From Chitinophaga pinensis (GTDB lineage Bacteria; Bacteroidota; Bacteroidia; Chitinophagales; CAIOSU01), in contig CAMDKI010000010.1 in the NCBI GenBank assembly GCA_945901065.1, positions 62,001-126,000 on the forward strand: DNA of 64,000 bases. Direction: 5' to 3'. The notes below the pieces were generated by a model that made no database searches, was not told the origin of the DNA, and was given only the letters and a program-made list of their open reading frames with translations. The position numbers and the translations under genes were made by a program. Below, one piece after another: positions 41,045 through 48,345 of this stretch. Positions within the stretch are counted from its first letter, which is position 1. The number at the start of each line of letters is the position of its first letter.

Positions 41045-42073
41045 CTACCGATAAAAGTAAAATCCACCCGTAATAATGCCCCCTTTCAATTGTTTCACCT
41101 CACTAAGTGTAGCGATATCGAAAGTATATACATCGCTACGCTGATTAAAGTCTAGCGCATCGGAGGCGTATAGCAAAGTATTGTCGGGCGAAATGCCGAT
41201 GGCGTAGTAGTTTCGGGTGCCTTTGGCAATAATAGGTGCAGGAGGTAGCGTATTAGATGTGCTGGCTAGTTTGTATATGCCGTCCGTGTTTAGGTAGTAT
41301 AAATTTGCACCATTCGGGTCAGCAATTAAATGGCTCGGCGATTCAGTAATTGGGAAGTTGAGCGTTACTTCTACCGAGCTATTGGTGGGGTTGATGCGGG
41401 TAAGCGCTGCCGCATCGGTGCCATCTTTTTGGCCCAATACCCATACTTGCCCTTGGGCATCTAATACCATTTCCATTGGGTGGCCAGCTACAATAATATG
41501 GCTAACCTTGGTATCGCTGGCAGGGTCAATCACTTCCACGCGCATACTATCGTAGTTGGCCACAAAAGCCAGTCCGTTAGCCAATACCATTTGTTCTGTC
41601 CAGCCCGGTAAGGTCATAGTGCCAGTTACAGTGTTGTTGTTGGTATTGATGATGGTGAGCTTATCGCCGTAAAGGTCGCTTACATAGGCACGGCCATTAC
41701 CTAAAGGCAGCATATAGCGCGGCGAAGTGAGTCCAGTGATGGTAGCCACGTTCTTGAAATCGAGCAAATCAACCACCTCTATTTTATTGGAGTTGTTTAC
41801 CACTGCATAACCATACCCACCAATACTCACCATGCTTTGCGCCACATCGCCCAACGGGCGGCTGTTTTGCGTTTGGTAAATGTCTTCGTAAAAGCTTTCG
41901 TTAATCGGGTTGTAGTAACTGATGGATGCATTGCCATAGGTATAATTGCCCTCATTGATAAACATAACTGCCCCGCTGCTGATGGGTAGGTCGGTTACTT
42001 CTTGGGTAGGTTTGGTTTTGTCGCAGGAGGTAAAAAGGGTTATTATAGTTGCAAAAAGCATAGCAATCCGCAT
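41045..42073 (-). CDS. BtuG-like YncE/DUF5074-type beta-propeller surface lipoprotein
   Basis: Start at MRIAMLFATIITLFTSCDK (lipobox); NEGNYTYGNASISYY and repeated propeller blades; last gene of B12-riboswitch locus. Confidence 0.72.
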   Translation of the reverse strand: MRIAMLFATIITLFTSCDKTKPTQEVTDLPISSGAVMFINEGNYTYGNASISYYNPINESFYEDIYQTQNSRPLGDVAQSMVSIGGYGYAVVNNSNKIEVVDLLDFKNVATITGLTSPRYMLPLGNGRAYVSDLYGDKLTIINTNNNTVTGTMTLPGWTEQMVLANGLAFVANYDSMRVEVIDPASDTKVSHIIVAGHPMEMVLDAQGQVWVLGQKDGTDAAALTRINPTNSSVEVTLNFPITESPSHLIADPNGANLYYLNTDGIYKLASTSNTLPPAPIIAKGTRNYYAIGISPDNTLLYASDALDFNQRSDVYTFDIATLSEVKQLKGGIITGGFYFYR

Positions 42074-42237
42074 GGAATTAAAGGTCTCATCCAAGCTAGC
42101 TGCTCGGCCAAGCGCCCCCCTCCCAACCTCCCCCCGAAAAAGGGGGAGGAGCTTTACATATTTTATGAAATTGTTTCCCATTTTTCTAAATCATTGTTGT
42201 TTACCTAAACTCGCAACCCGTAACCCGCAACCCGCAA

Positions 42238-44166
42238 CTATTTCTTCTTTACCGCAAATTCAAACCTCACCCCACCGCTAAAACTCCTGCCGGGCATAGG
42301 GCGCCAAGCAATGTTCTGGTACTCGGCGTTCCAAAGGTTTTCGGCGGCTATGTACAAACTTAATCCTTTTAACTTCTTACCGAAGTCTTTGCCTAATCTC
42401 AAATCGCCAGTAGTGAAGGCTGGCAACGATTGGCTATTGTCGCTGGTGATGTAGCGCATGCCGCACAAGTGCTGACGGTATTGCAGGTAGTAGCCCATAT
42501 AGCCCACCATGCCCGAAATATTGCCCAAATGCTGGGGGGTGTATATCAATAGTTTGCCCTCACTGCTGCCAATAGCGCCGCCGCTGGTTTCGTTGGTGGC
42601 TTTACTGAAGTGGTAATTGGCCGTAAAGCGATACGTCCAATCGTTCTTTTTACCATCTACTTTTATCAAAGCCTCCACGCCGCGAGATTTTACACGCTTC
42701 ACGTTCTCGGGTGTCCAAATGCCCGTGCTGCTTTCGGGCAGCCACAGTATCCAGTTCTGCACATCCAAGTAATAGGAATTAATGCTGGTTTCGAGCTTAA
42801 AGCCTTTCTCAAAGCTCTTATCATAGCCCACTTTGCCCTCGGTGCCCCAGCCCTTTTCCTGCTGCAAATCGGGGTTGCCGCCCACGCTCCAGTAGCGGTC
42901 GTTTAGGGTGGGGTAGCGATAGTTGCGGAAGATGTTGGTGGAGATATAGAAATATGGCTTTTTAAGCGGAGCGTAACGAACGGTAAATGAAGGTAAAAAA
43001 GGGGATAACAGATTGTAGACTAGTTCTTGACGCAGAATTAGGTTTACATTCCATTTATTATTCTTGCTCTGGTAAAAAGAGCTACCGATGAAACCAGAAA
43101 TAGGTTGGTATTTTATACCATCAAAATTATCAGTGACAGCCCAAAGACTTGTATGTTCCAGTTTTGCTTGAAATTGAATGTTTTGCTTGGATATGAAGTA
43201 GCCATATCGGAGTAGCCCCATTGCTGCATGGGTCTGACTTCTAGAGTCTATCTCGGGCAGTTTTGATTGGTAATTGATTTCATCAAATTTATAAGAGCTT
43301 TCAAAATGCAGAAGTTGGCTACTAGGCTTAAGTAGATTTTTTGTTTCAAGTTTAATCAAGCCAAGCCAATCCGATTGGTTTTGAAAACTATTTGCACTAA
43401 GCATTGTGGGTGGAATCTGGCGATCTGTTTTAGATACAAAAGACATTATGTTGAAATGCTTGTGGTATAGCTCAGCAATTGAAGCGTACTGTATAAAGTT
43501 GGCATACTCTTGTTTTTGATTGGGTTCGCCAAACACCGTAACATTCTTAAATTCAAAATCATTAATAGCTCTCCTATATAGAAATCCAATTTTACCACTA
43601 AGCTTGCCCGTGCTAGCACTCAGTTTTAACGCAGTACTGTGCGTTCCAAAACTTCCCACCTCATAACATGCTAAGCCCGATAATCCTTTCGGAAGGATTT
43701 TTGGGGTGCTTCCCACATTCACTGCTCCACCAAAACTGCCACTGCCTGCTTGAATTGTATTGCCACCAAAAGACACCGATGCTCCATCAAAAACACCCAT
43801 GGGCAGATTCGTTAAGTCAATAGTGCCGTTCATGCCTGAGTTGATGGGTATTCCATTCCAAAAAACCTTTGTTTGCGATGCTCCCATACCCCTAAAACCG
43901 GTAGTAGCAAGTGCTCCTGGTCCGTACGATTTGATATAAACTCCCGTGTTTTCTTGGAGCAAATTTCCTAATGAACTGGATTGATAGTAAACCTTATCAG
44001 CAGAGTCAATAAACTGGATATTAAAGGGATTGCTCACAAATTTGACCTTAATGCTATTATCGCTTACCTCTACGGTATCAATCCGCTGTATGCTATCAAT
44101 TGGCACCTGCCCATAGGCAGCCGTCCAAGCTAGCAACAGCATAATATGGAGAGGTGCAAACTTCAT
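42238..44166 (-). CDS. TonB-dependent receptor, BtuB-like
   Basis: Plug domain (LLQENTGVYIKSYGPGALATTGFRGMGASQTKVFWNGIPINS), C-terminal barrel ending in aromatic-rich strand. Confidence 0.88.
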   Translation of the reverse strand: MKFAPLHIMLLLAWTAAYGQVPIDSIQRIDTVEVSDNSIKVKFVSNPFNIQFIDSADKVYYQSSSLGNLLQENTGVYIKSYGPGALATTGFRGMGASQTKVFWNGIPINSGMNGTIDLTNLPMGVFDGASVSFGGNTIQAGSGSFGGAVNVGSTPKILPKGLSGLACYEVGSFGTHSTALKLSASTGKLSGKIGFLYRRAINDFEFKNVTVFGEPNQKQEYANFIQYASIAELYHKHFNIMSFVSKTDRQIPPTMLSANSFQNQSDWLGLIKLETKNLLKPSSQLLHFESSYKFDEINYQSKLPEIDSRSQTHAAMGLLRYGYFISKQNIQFQAKLEHTSLWAVTDNFDGIKYQPISGFIGSSFYQSKNNKWNVNLILRQELVYNLLSPFLPSFTVRYAPLKKPYFYISTNIFRNYRYPTLNDRYWSVGGNPDLQQEKGWGTEGKVGYDKSFEKGFKLETSINSYYLDVQNWILWLPESSTGIWTPENVKRVKSRGVEALIKVDGKKNDWTYRFTANYHFSKATNETSGGAIGSSEGKLLIYTPQHLGNISGMVGYMGYYLQYRQHLCGMRYITSDNSQSLPAFTTGDLRLGKDFGKKLKGLSLYIAAENLWNAEYQNIAWRPMPGRSFSGGVRFEFAVKKK

Positions 44167-44519
44167 TTAACCACTATAATCTTTTGGGTAAGGGTGCCCG
44201 CTTGGGTGCGGATAATACCGATGCATAAACCCGCTTGTGTAACAATCACGGGCAATTGTTGCACGGGTTGCTCAATGGTTTGGGTATGGATGATGCGGCC
44301 CGTGATGTCAATTATTTGCAGTTCGCCAATAGTTGGACAGGTAATGTAAATTGCCTCACCTGCCTTTGCTATTGCTGGGTAAATCTGGTAGCCATCTGCT
44401 GTATATAGTTCATTCAAGGCTACACTTCTCAATTGCAACTCACCCATGGCATGGCCATCACCAGGGCCGCCAGTGTATGGGGTTTGGGCGTGGGTGCAGT
44501 TATTGGTTATTAGTAGCAT
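44163..44519 (-). CDS. Small secreted protein consisting largely of a T9SS type-A sorting domain
   Basis: Signal-like MLLITNNCTHAQ, GGPGDGHAMGELQLRS, then YQIYPAIAKAGEAIYITCP...QKIIVVK CTD; ATGA overlap with TonB receptor. Track start 44858 is within repeats. Confidence 0.65.
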   Translation of the reverse strand: MLLITNNCTHAQTPYTGGPGDGHAMGELQLRSVALNELYTADGYQIYPAIAKAGEAIYITCPTIGELQIIDITGRIIHTQTIEQPVQQLPVIVTQAGLCIGIIRTQAGTLTQKIIVVK

Positions 44520-44845
44520 GGTTATTAGTAATGCTGCGTGTTTTGACCGCAACGAACGCAAAGTTAAAACGCAAAGAGCGCTAAGAGCGGAAGCTTGCGT
44601 GTCATCCTGAGTACTTCGACCACGCTCAGCACAGGCCTGTCGAAGGGTGCGCGCGATTGGCTGCCCGCCGTAGCTTTTCGCGGAGGTGGGAGGGGCTTGT
44701 GCGGCTTGTGCAGTTGAGGTAACCTGTTTTATCCCTTCGTTGCAAGTATAAGGGTTGCTTTGGGCTGCACTACTCGCCCCAATACCCCCTCCTAACCTCC
44801 CTCTGAAAAAGGGTGAGGAACCTACATATTTTGTTATTCGCAGTT
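44520..44845. repeat. Mosaic of dispersed repeat-like sequences inside the B12 locus
   Basis: CGCAAAG-type degenerate tandem (44540-44590), CTTCGAC...GTCGAAG inverted repeat (44614-44645), CCCCCTCC..GAAAAAGGGTGAGGA element (44780-44822). Confidence 0.6.
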
Positions 44846-48005: not shown

Positions 48006-48081
48006 TGCTTTTAAGGTTTTTGAGTTAAAAGAAATGGGGAGTAATAATACGGGAATAGAAAACCCAATATGGGCTGCTATT

Positions 48082-48107
48082 CCAGGTCTTTCTCCCCGAA
48101 GACCTGG
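48082..48107 (-). promoter_or_regulatory. Candidate riboswitch expression-platform hairpin
   Basis: CCAGGTCTT-N8-AAGACCTGG perfect 9-bp stem just downstream of the aptamer. Confidence 0.6.
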
Positions 48108-48114
48108 GAATAAG

Positions 48115-48345
48115 ATGTGCAGTAGGCAGGTCTTCTGGCTCGTTCCGCCTTGGCCGCCTTCCCATTTCACCGAAGCGAAAAAGTGGCATTTTGGACAAGG
48201 TTTTGGGCGAGTATTTGGCTTGTCTAGAATTTGCTAAACACTCACCGTGTGGAACTTACAGCAACGGGGATTGCTCCGGATTTGCACCGGATTCCCTATT
48301 AAGTCTTGTTTAAAACAAGACACCTACAACATCGTAATCCGAGGG
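48115..48345 (-). ncRNA. Cobalamin (B12) riboswitch
   Basis: Minus strand contains GGGAATCCGGTGCAAATCCGGAGCAATCCCCGTTGCTGTAAG ... AATGCCACT ... GGGAAGGCGGCC ... GAGCCAGAAGACCTGCC, matching the AdoCbl aptamer core and B12-box region. Confidence 0.93.

What the first reader, a model, noticed from the sequence alone, without database searches (positions are those of the whole stretch)
41045..48345. Cobalamin-riboswitch-controlled surface corrinoid-capture locus with T9SS-delivered components
On the minus strand, a B12 riboswitch precedes, in order: a T9SS-sorted beta-propeller-like protein (46446-48005), a secreted FGE-fold protein (44874-46358), a tiny T9SS-CTD protein (44163-44519), a BtuB-like TonB receptor (42238-44166) and a BtuG-like propeller lipoprotein (41045-42073). 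In Bacteroides, BtuG is a surface beta-propeller lipoprotein that pairs with BtuB to capture B12. Here there appear to be two propeller-like proteins using different surface routes (lipoprotein and T9SS), plus two accessory proteins not in the classic Btu set as I know it. The accessory roles are inference.
Basis: partly seen in the sequence, partly recalled or inferred. Interest (0 to 1): 0.88.

Follow-up and report, generated by a model that had tools for sequence, protein, structure and literature searches.

The report
Vitamin B12 capture operon using T9SS
This is a vitamin-B12-switched gene set from an environmental Bacteroidota bacterium that appears to place a second B12-capture-type protein outside the cell through the type IX secretion system, together with an unusual two-gene surface module, and related sets recur across several orders of the phylum although the open-access papers searched do not describe this delivery route.

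Summary
RF00174 matches at 92.8 bits and is the genome's only copy. BtuB and lipoprotein BtuG are confirmed against solved Bacteroides structures. The first gene encodes a T9SS-tailed beta-propeller (T9prop) that is a remote BtuG paralogue: hhalign 99.7%, E=1e-26, and Foldseek's top 12 PDB hits are all BtuG. T9prop is a multi-order B12-linked family: 45 of 51 genome loci found by protein sequence alone have a cobalamin riboswitch directly upstream. The commonest order is riboswitch > T9prop > an unnamed T9SS-tailed ~330-aa protein > BtuB > BtuG. In the window's lineage that unnamed gene is replaced by an FGE-fold protein plus a tiny T9SS protein. This pair is a wider module: 24 of 29 FGE homologues are followed by a GGxxDG-motif gene. 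The FGE lacks conserved catalytic cysteines, so I read it as binding or structural. Corrinoid capture by T9prop is well supported but not shown; the FGE/small-protein role is inference. Verdict: real, a new variant of the known Btu systems, with the T9SS route not described in the open-access literature searched.

The parts
48108..48340 (-). cobalamin riboswitch aptamer (RF00174)
   Evidence: 92.8 bits, gathering 31.5, full length, single copy in genome
48054..48107 (-). expression platform: two hairpins (48082-48107 and 48054-48081); the 5' arm CAGGTCTTC can instead pair with AGAAGACCTG of the aptamer's 3' strand (48127-48136)
   Evidence: fold z -3.8 for 47985-48107; first hairpin kept in 5 congeners with three pairs changed on both sides in one lineage; competing pairing preferred in the consensus fold
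46446..48005 (-). T9prop: T9SS-tailed, BtuG-related seven-bladed-type propeller protein, 519 aa
   Evidence: PF17963, PF18962, TIGR04183; AlphaFold2 pLDDT 84; BtuG is best fold match; hhalign to BtuG family 99.7%
46986..47927 (-). T9prop propeller domain (residues 27-340)
46446..46661 (-). T9prop type A C-terminal sorting domain (residues 449-519)
   Evidence: TIGR04183 38.8 bits, cut-off 23
44874..46358 (-). secreted FGE-fold protein with N-terminal beta domain, no sorting domain, 494 aa
   Evidence: PF03781 27.1 bits; AlphaFold2 pLDDT 85; Foldseek to formylglycine-generating enzymes; no conserved C-terminal cysteines
44163..44519 (-). small T9SS protein: signal-like start, one GGxGDG unit, then sorting domain (start codon uncertain)
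   Evidence: TIGR04183 21.3 bits, orthologues 24-40 bits; alignment of orthologues
44445..44477 (-). YTGGPGDGHAM motif of the small protein
   Evidence: motif follows 24 of 29 FGE homologues within 350 nt
42238..44166 (-). BtuB-like TonB-dependent receptor, 642 aa
   Evidence: PDB 8p97_A E 3e-51; TIGR01779 58 bits, below equivalog cut-off
41045..42073 (-). BtuG lipoprotein propeller, 342 aa, lipobox cysteine 17
   Evidence: DUF5074 73.6 bits; PDB 8bmx_D E 1e-47; Cys17 invariant in 30 homologues

Best explanation
This is an outer-membrane corrinoid-acquisition operon switched on when cellular cobalamin is low. BtuB and the surface lipoprotein BtuG form the import complex (inferred from close relatives of solved complexes). 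T9prop is a BtuG paralogue that uses the type IX secretion system and its C-terminal sorting domain, so it is anchored to surface lipopolysaccharide or released, and captures corrinoids farther from the membrane, passing them to BtuG/BtuB (binding and hand-over inferred). The FGE-fold protein and the small T9SS protein form a two-subunit surface module: the small protein supplies a GGxGDG docking motif and the sorting tail, and the FGE-fold protein, lacking the catalytic cysteines, docks on it as a non-catalytic binding or scaffolding subunit (inference). The pair occupies the slot that another T9SS-tailed protein family fills in most related operons.
For: Riboswitch. BtuB/BtuG. T9prop related to BtuG: hhalign 99.7%, E 1e-26, 316 columns, co-linear; a T9prop family profile finds solved BtuG chains at E about 1e-6; Foldseek top 12 PDB matches are BtuG with target TM about 0.7, next propellers about 0.55-0.62; genome-wide in 200 Bacteroidota, all 25 best hits in genomes with a listed riboswitch fall within 8 kb downstream of it, mostly at the BtuG position. 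T9prop and B12: 45 of 51 loci found by protein sequence have RF00174 just upstream; in several genomes T9prop is the first riboswitch gene without BtuB nearby (L043, L044, L046, L047, L064, L084). T9SS present: SprA 2603 bits. Net charge of T9prop propeller -19 and BtuG -13, in line with the published electrostatic capture model for BtuG2 (-18; PMC10404256). Cassette conserved in three families of the order. MetH present.
Against: No binding data. T9prop's conserved residues differ from those of BtuG at aligned pocket positions (BtuG E41 to G39, E160 to K; my reading), so it may bind another ligand form or none. Of five named BtuG2 aromatic contacts the window's own BtuG keeps Y316, has W194 as Tyr and Y335 as Phe, and lacks Y239 and W272 (my reading with PMC10404256). 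FGE homologues are mostly outside B12 loci, so their tie to corrinoids is weak. The small protein's sorting-domain score is just under cut-off, and at L103 and L106 FGE lacks the small partner.
Confidence: 0.6

Rival explanations
1. T9prop is not a corrinoid binder but a surface adhesin or structural propeller that moved into the B12 operon; riboswitch control reflects position only.
For: Beta-propellers are common surface scaffolds; pocket residues differ from BtuG; the Big_9 module is optional (absent in L034, L035).
Against: First-gene position behind B12 riboswitches in 45 of 51 loci over several orders, including loci where it is the only obvious B12-related gene; BtuG is its closest solved relative by sequence profile and fold.
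Confidence: 0.2
2. The FGE protein is an enzyme that modifies the GGxGDG motif of the small protein (or a corrinoid), rather than a binding subunit.
For: Persistent FGE/GGxxDG neighbourhood, 24 of 29 loci, with repeated motifs in several partners, which looks like an enzyme-substrate pair; many invariant polar residues in the FGE family; PvdO- and EgtB-type relatives of the fold are oxidases (general knowledge).
Against: No cysteine of the C-terminal third is conserved, so the copper site of formylglycine-generating enzymes is missing; the motif has no cysteine substrate.
Confidence: 0.25
3. FGE plus small protein is a generic T9SS surface adhesin or lectin-like module that hitch-hikes in this B12 operon and has no role in corrinoid uptake.
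For: The family is large (over 4305 relatives) and mostly unlinked to riboswitches in the sampled genomes; the FGE fold is also used by non-catalytic lectin-like proteins (general knowledge).
Against: Insertion between T9prop and BtuB under the riboswitch is kept over three families; the slot is otherwise held by another T9SS protein family and the two never co-occur in the loci surveyed.
Confidence: 0.35

Closest known systems
Bacteroides BtuB-BtuG corrinoid uptake loci (PMC6143338, PMC10404256)
   Same: B12 riboswitch, BtuB receptor, BtuG lipoprotein propeller; BtuG and BtuB match solved structures
   Different: A second, T9SS-exported BtuG paralogue leads the operon; FGE-fold and GGxGDG/sorting-domain proteins take the place of BtuH/BtuJ/BtuK-type lipoproteins; no BtuFCD in the operon
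BtuJ / DUF4465 B12-binding proteins (PMC12751083, PMC13398666)
   Same: Accessory B12-binding surface proteins of riboswitch loci; related operons of the same order carry DUF4465 with a T9SS tail
   Different: No DUF4465 protein in the window's operon; T9prop is a propeller, not a jelly roll
BtuH B12-binding proteins (PMC8941943)
   Same: Accessory surface protein at Btu loci, domain-shuffled with propellers
   Different: Lipoprotein of another fold; no similarity to the window proteins was seen in the solved-structure searches
Formylglycine-generating enzyme / SUMF1-EgtB-PvdO superfamily
   Same: Fold and PF03781 match
   Different: No conserved cysteine pair; extra N-terminal beta domain; paired with GGxxDG secreted proteins

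Membership tests
Cobalamin riboswitch RF00174 | covariance-model match above gathering score | tested here: met
   92.8 bits versus 31.5
Cobalamin riboswitch RF00174 | ligand-dependent expression platform | tested here: inconclusive
   competing hairpins conserved in congeners with some covariation; no expression data
BtuB | sequence relation to proven B12 TonB-dependent receptors | tested here: met
   8p97_A E 3e-51, 8bmx_C E 3e-50; the equivalog TIGR01779 cut-off is not reached (58 of 600 bits)
BtuG | propeller homologous to BtuG2 with lipobox and linkage to BtuB and riboswitch | tested here: met
   position in operon
BtuG | corrinoid binding | not testable with these tools
   needs purified protein
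BtuG (T9prop as member) | homologous propeller domain | tested here: met
BtuG (T9prop as member) | surface lipoprotein signal | tested here: not met
   no lipobox cysteine in the T9prop N-terminus; T9SS sorting domain instead; hence filed as a paralogue, not as BtuG
T9SS type A cargo (T9prop) | C-terminal sorting domain above cut-off and T9SS in genome | tested here: met
   TIGR04183 38.8 bits; SprA
T9SS type A cargo (small protein) | C-terminal sorting domain above cut-off | tested here: inconclusive
   21.3 bits versus 23 in the window, 24-40 bits in orthologues
Formylglycine-generating enzyme | FGE fold | tested here: met
Formylglycine-generating enzyme | conserved C-terminal cysteine pair (copper site) | tested here: not met
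   no invariant or near-invariant cysteine in the C-terminal third of 46 homologues; placed by the RGG(S/A)W motif, as profile alignments to FGE end before it
DUF4465 / BtuJ | PF14717 match | tested here: not met
   no match in the window proteins

The most novel reading that the evidence does not exclude
Bacteroidota without the gut Btu lipoprotein set run a T9SS-delivered corrinoid capture layer, with a secreted or LPS-anchored BtuG paralogue handing B12 to BtuBG, and in this lineage a split T9SS cargo: a tiny sorting-domain protein whose only other feature is a GGxGDG docking motif carries an FGE-fold partner without a sorting domain to the surface. The FGE/GGxxDG pair would be a general two-gene surface module of the phylum.
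Probability: 0.3. Interest if true: 0.78.

Novelty: new variant of a known kind. Interest (0 to 1): 0.64.

Why it matters
Known corrinoid capture in Bacteroidota rests on gut Bacteroides lipoproteins. This locus and its relatives indicate that environmental Bacteroidota add a second, T9SS-exported capture layer built from a BtuG paralogue, and often T9SS-tailed DUF4465 or other proteins. That would join T9SS to vitamin acquisition, explain how B12-dependent free-living Bacteroidota may compete for scarce corrinoids, and give specific proteins to test. The FGE/GGxxDG pairing is a widespread two-gene association for which the paper searches found no description, and it may reveal how T9SS cargoes are assembled from subunits.

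Tried and rejected
FGE as an active formylglycine-generating enzyme: rejected as the leading reading because no C-terminal cysteine is conserved. FGE as specific to B12 loci: rejected, most homologues lie elsewhere. T9prop as an unrelated propeller: rejected. DUF4465/BtuJ in the window: absent. BtuC elsewhere in the genome to complete the pathway: only weak partial FecCD hits, in all five genomes of the genus. A hand-made riboswitch detector recovered only 34 of 57 known sites with no false hit, so Rfam was run on the loci it left empty. Promoter/terminator scan gave no more than chance. Repeat search across the operon found nothing notable. One family scan failed on a bad coordinate. Literature searches for T9SS with B12 riboswitch, BtuB or BtuG found no paper describing this arrangement; only open-access papers are held.
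Full report
Observation. All six elements are present as described. Rfam finds one cobalamin riboswitch in the window, 48340-48108 minus, 92.8 bits, full length, and it is the only one in the 3.3-Mb genome. Behind it, on the same strand, lie T9prop (46446-48005), the FGE protein (44874-46358), a small T9SS protein (44163-44519), BtuB (42238-44166, overlapping the small gene by 4 bases) and BtuG (41045-42073). The next gene downstream is on the other strand. 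The start of the small gene is uncertain: the ORF extends upstream, but conservation among orthologues begins just before LLITNN..AQTPYTGG.

Identity of BtuB and BtuG. BtuB matches the B. theta BtuB structures (8p97, 8p98, 8bmx) at E about 1e-50 and BtuG matches BtuG2 at E 1e-47 over its whole length, with DUF5074 at 73.6 bits and a lipobox cysteine invariant in 30 homologues. Reading the alignment against PMC10404256, the window BtuG keeps Y316 of the five named aromatic contacts, has Tyr for W194 and Phe for Y335, and lacks Y239 and W272.

T9prop is a BtuG paralogue with a T9SS tail. It has a type A sorting domain (38.8 bits, cut-off 23) and a Big_9 domain. AlphaFold2 gives pLDDT 84. The 12 best PDB matches of the model are all BtuG chains (target TM about 0.66-0.73, apart from the two-domain BtuG1 chain), ahead of BamB and designed propellers at about 0.55-0.62. 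Profile-profile comparison with a BtuG family alignment gives 98.9% (narrow alignment) and 99.7%, E 1.3e-26 over 316 co-linear columns (wide alignment). As a profile against PDB sequences, BtuG chains are the only propellers matched over the full length at E about 1e-6. In 200 Bacteroidota genomes a profile of the propeller alone finds, among its best hits, BtuG genes: of 39 best non-self hits, 25 lie in genomes whose riboswitch coordinates were listed, and all 25 are within 8 kb downstream of it. No lipobox is seen, so T9prop is filed as a BtuG paralogue, not as BtuG. In that same draw only two genomes other than the window's have a strong T9prop hit (over 250 bits), so the family is scattered rather than common among sampled species.

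T9prop is tied to B12 across orders. A collection scan by protein sequence returned 51 loci with record titles naming Chitinophagales, Saprospiraceae, Aureispira, Flavobacteriales, Bacteroidales, Marinilabiliales and Chlorobiota (titles of MAGs, not verified here). A cobalamin riboswitch lies directly upstream in 45: 25 by a strict pattern detector with no false hit on known loci and 20 more by Rfam; one of the six others starts at a contig edge. In about twenty the order is riboswitch > T9prop > an unnamed ~330-aa T9SS-tailed protein > BtuB > BtuG. In some genomes T9prop is the first riboswitch gene with no BtuB beside it. In the wider order survey, T9SS-tailed DUF4465 proteins (relatives of the proven B12 binders BtuJ1/J2) also sit at riboswitch loci. 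T9SS delivery of accessory proteins is thus a recurring theme at B12 loci of these bacteria.

The FGE and small T9SS proteins. The cassette riboswitch > T9prop > FGE > small > BtuB > BtuG is kept in the window, G003, G004, G005 and G015; in G001 BtuG is not beside it and in G002 the contig ends after FGE; in G019 the order is BtuB > T9prop > FGE > small > BtuG. Two more Bacteroidia loci have T9prop > FGE without the small gene (L103, L106), and equal contig lengths suggest T9prop-FGE linkage in further assemblies (inference). FGE and the unnamed 330-aa protein never co-occur in the surveyed loci, consistent with replacement. The FGE model (pLDDT 85) matches formylglycine-generating enzymes, but no cysteine in the C-terminal third is conserved in 46 homologues. 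The family is large (at least 4305 relatives) and mostly outside B12 loci. In and out of B12 loci, 24 of 29 FGE genes are followed within 350 nt by a secreted protein with a [YF]xGGxxDG or GGxGRGD motif, often repeated; only 45 of 2236 background ORFs have it, many of them the same genes. A tree of 49 FGE proteins clusters the B12-linked ones (3 changes versus 8.9 in shuffles) without proving a single origin. The window's small protein is essentially one such motif plus a sorting domain. My inference is that it docks and anchors the FGE protein, a split T9SS cargo. An enzyme-substrate relation is the main rival.

Regulation and metabolism. After the aptamer two conserved hairpins follow (z -3.8); the first is kept in five congeners with three compensatory pairs in one lineage, and its 5' arm can instead pair with the aptamer's 3' strand, as expected of a switch. 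The genome has SprA (2603 bits) and MetH, so it has T9SS and a B12 use. No convincing BtuC permease was found in it or four congeners, so the inner-membrane step is open.

Comparison and novelty. Known systems are the B. theta Btu loci with BtuB, BtuG, BtuH, BtuJ, BtuK and BtuL lipoproteins (PMC6143338, PMC10404256, PMC8941943, PMC12751083, PMC13398666). Term searches in three of these papers found no mention of T9SS, and library searches combining T9SS with B12, BtuB or BtuG found no description. The library holds only open-access papers. I rate it a new variant of a known kind.

Shown here: riboswitch, gene identities, T9prop-BtuG homology, recurrence, FGE/GGxxDG association. Inferred: co-transcription, surface location, corrinoid binding by T9prop, hand-over to BtuG, docking of FGE on the small protein.

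Noticed in passing
L090-L097, L151-L175 (FGE loci): FGE-fold genes are followed by secreted GGxxDG / GGxGRGD-motif genes in 24 of 29 cases, a widespread two-gene module of unknown function.
   Followed up: partly
L051, L055, L063, L069, L087: DUF4465 (BtuJ-type) proteins with T9SS sorting domains at B12-riboswitch loci.
   Followed up: partly
L105, L109, L116-L148 (second gene): Unnamed ~330-aa T9SS-tailed family (QFAPPAGQxGSTAI start; LGDGG, FAVFEN motifs) between T9prop and BtuB; no Pfam domain or solved relative apart from the sorting tail.
   Followed up: partly
L103:8926-11793: One 955-aa protein with two T9prop propeller copies in tandem and one sorting domain, behind a cobalamin riboswitch and before an FGE gene.
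   Followed up: no
own genome and 4 congeners: No convincing FecCD/BtuC permease; only 32-36 bit partial hits, so the inner-membrane B12 route is unexplained.
   Followed up: partly
G000:C15:19637-23253: MetH is encoded as two adjacent ORFs, N-terminal 345 aa and C-terminal 921 aa.
   Followed up: no
L043 (G006): B12 riboswitch > T9prop followed by malate synthase and isocitrate lyase genes on the same strand; co-regulation not tested.
   Followed up: no
window 44520-44858 and 42074-42181: ORF extensions upstream of the small gene and of BtuG contain variable, repeat-like sequence (SSPFFRGRLGGG, LPLFRGEVGRG) that differs among congeners; may be interspersed intergenic repeats.
   Followed up: no
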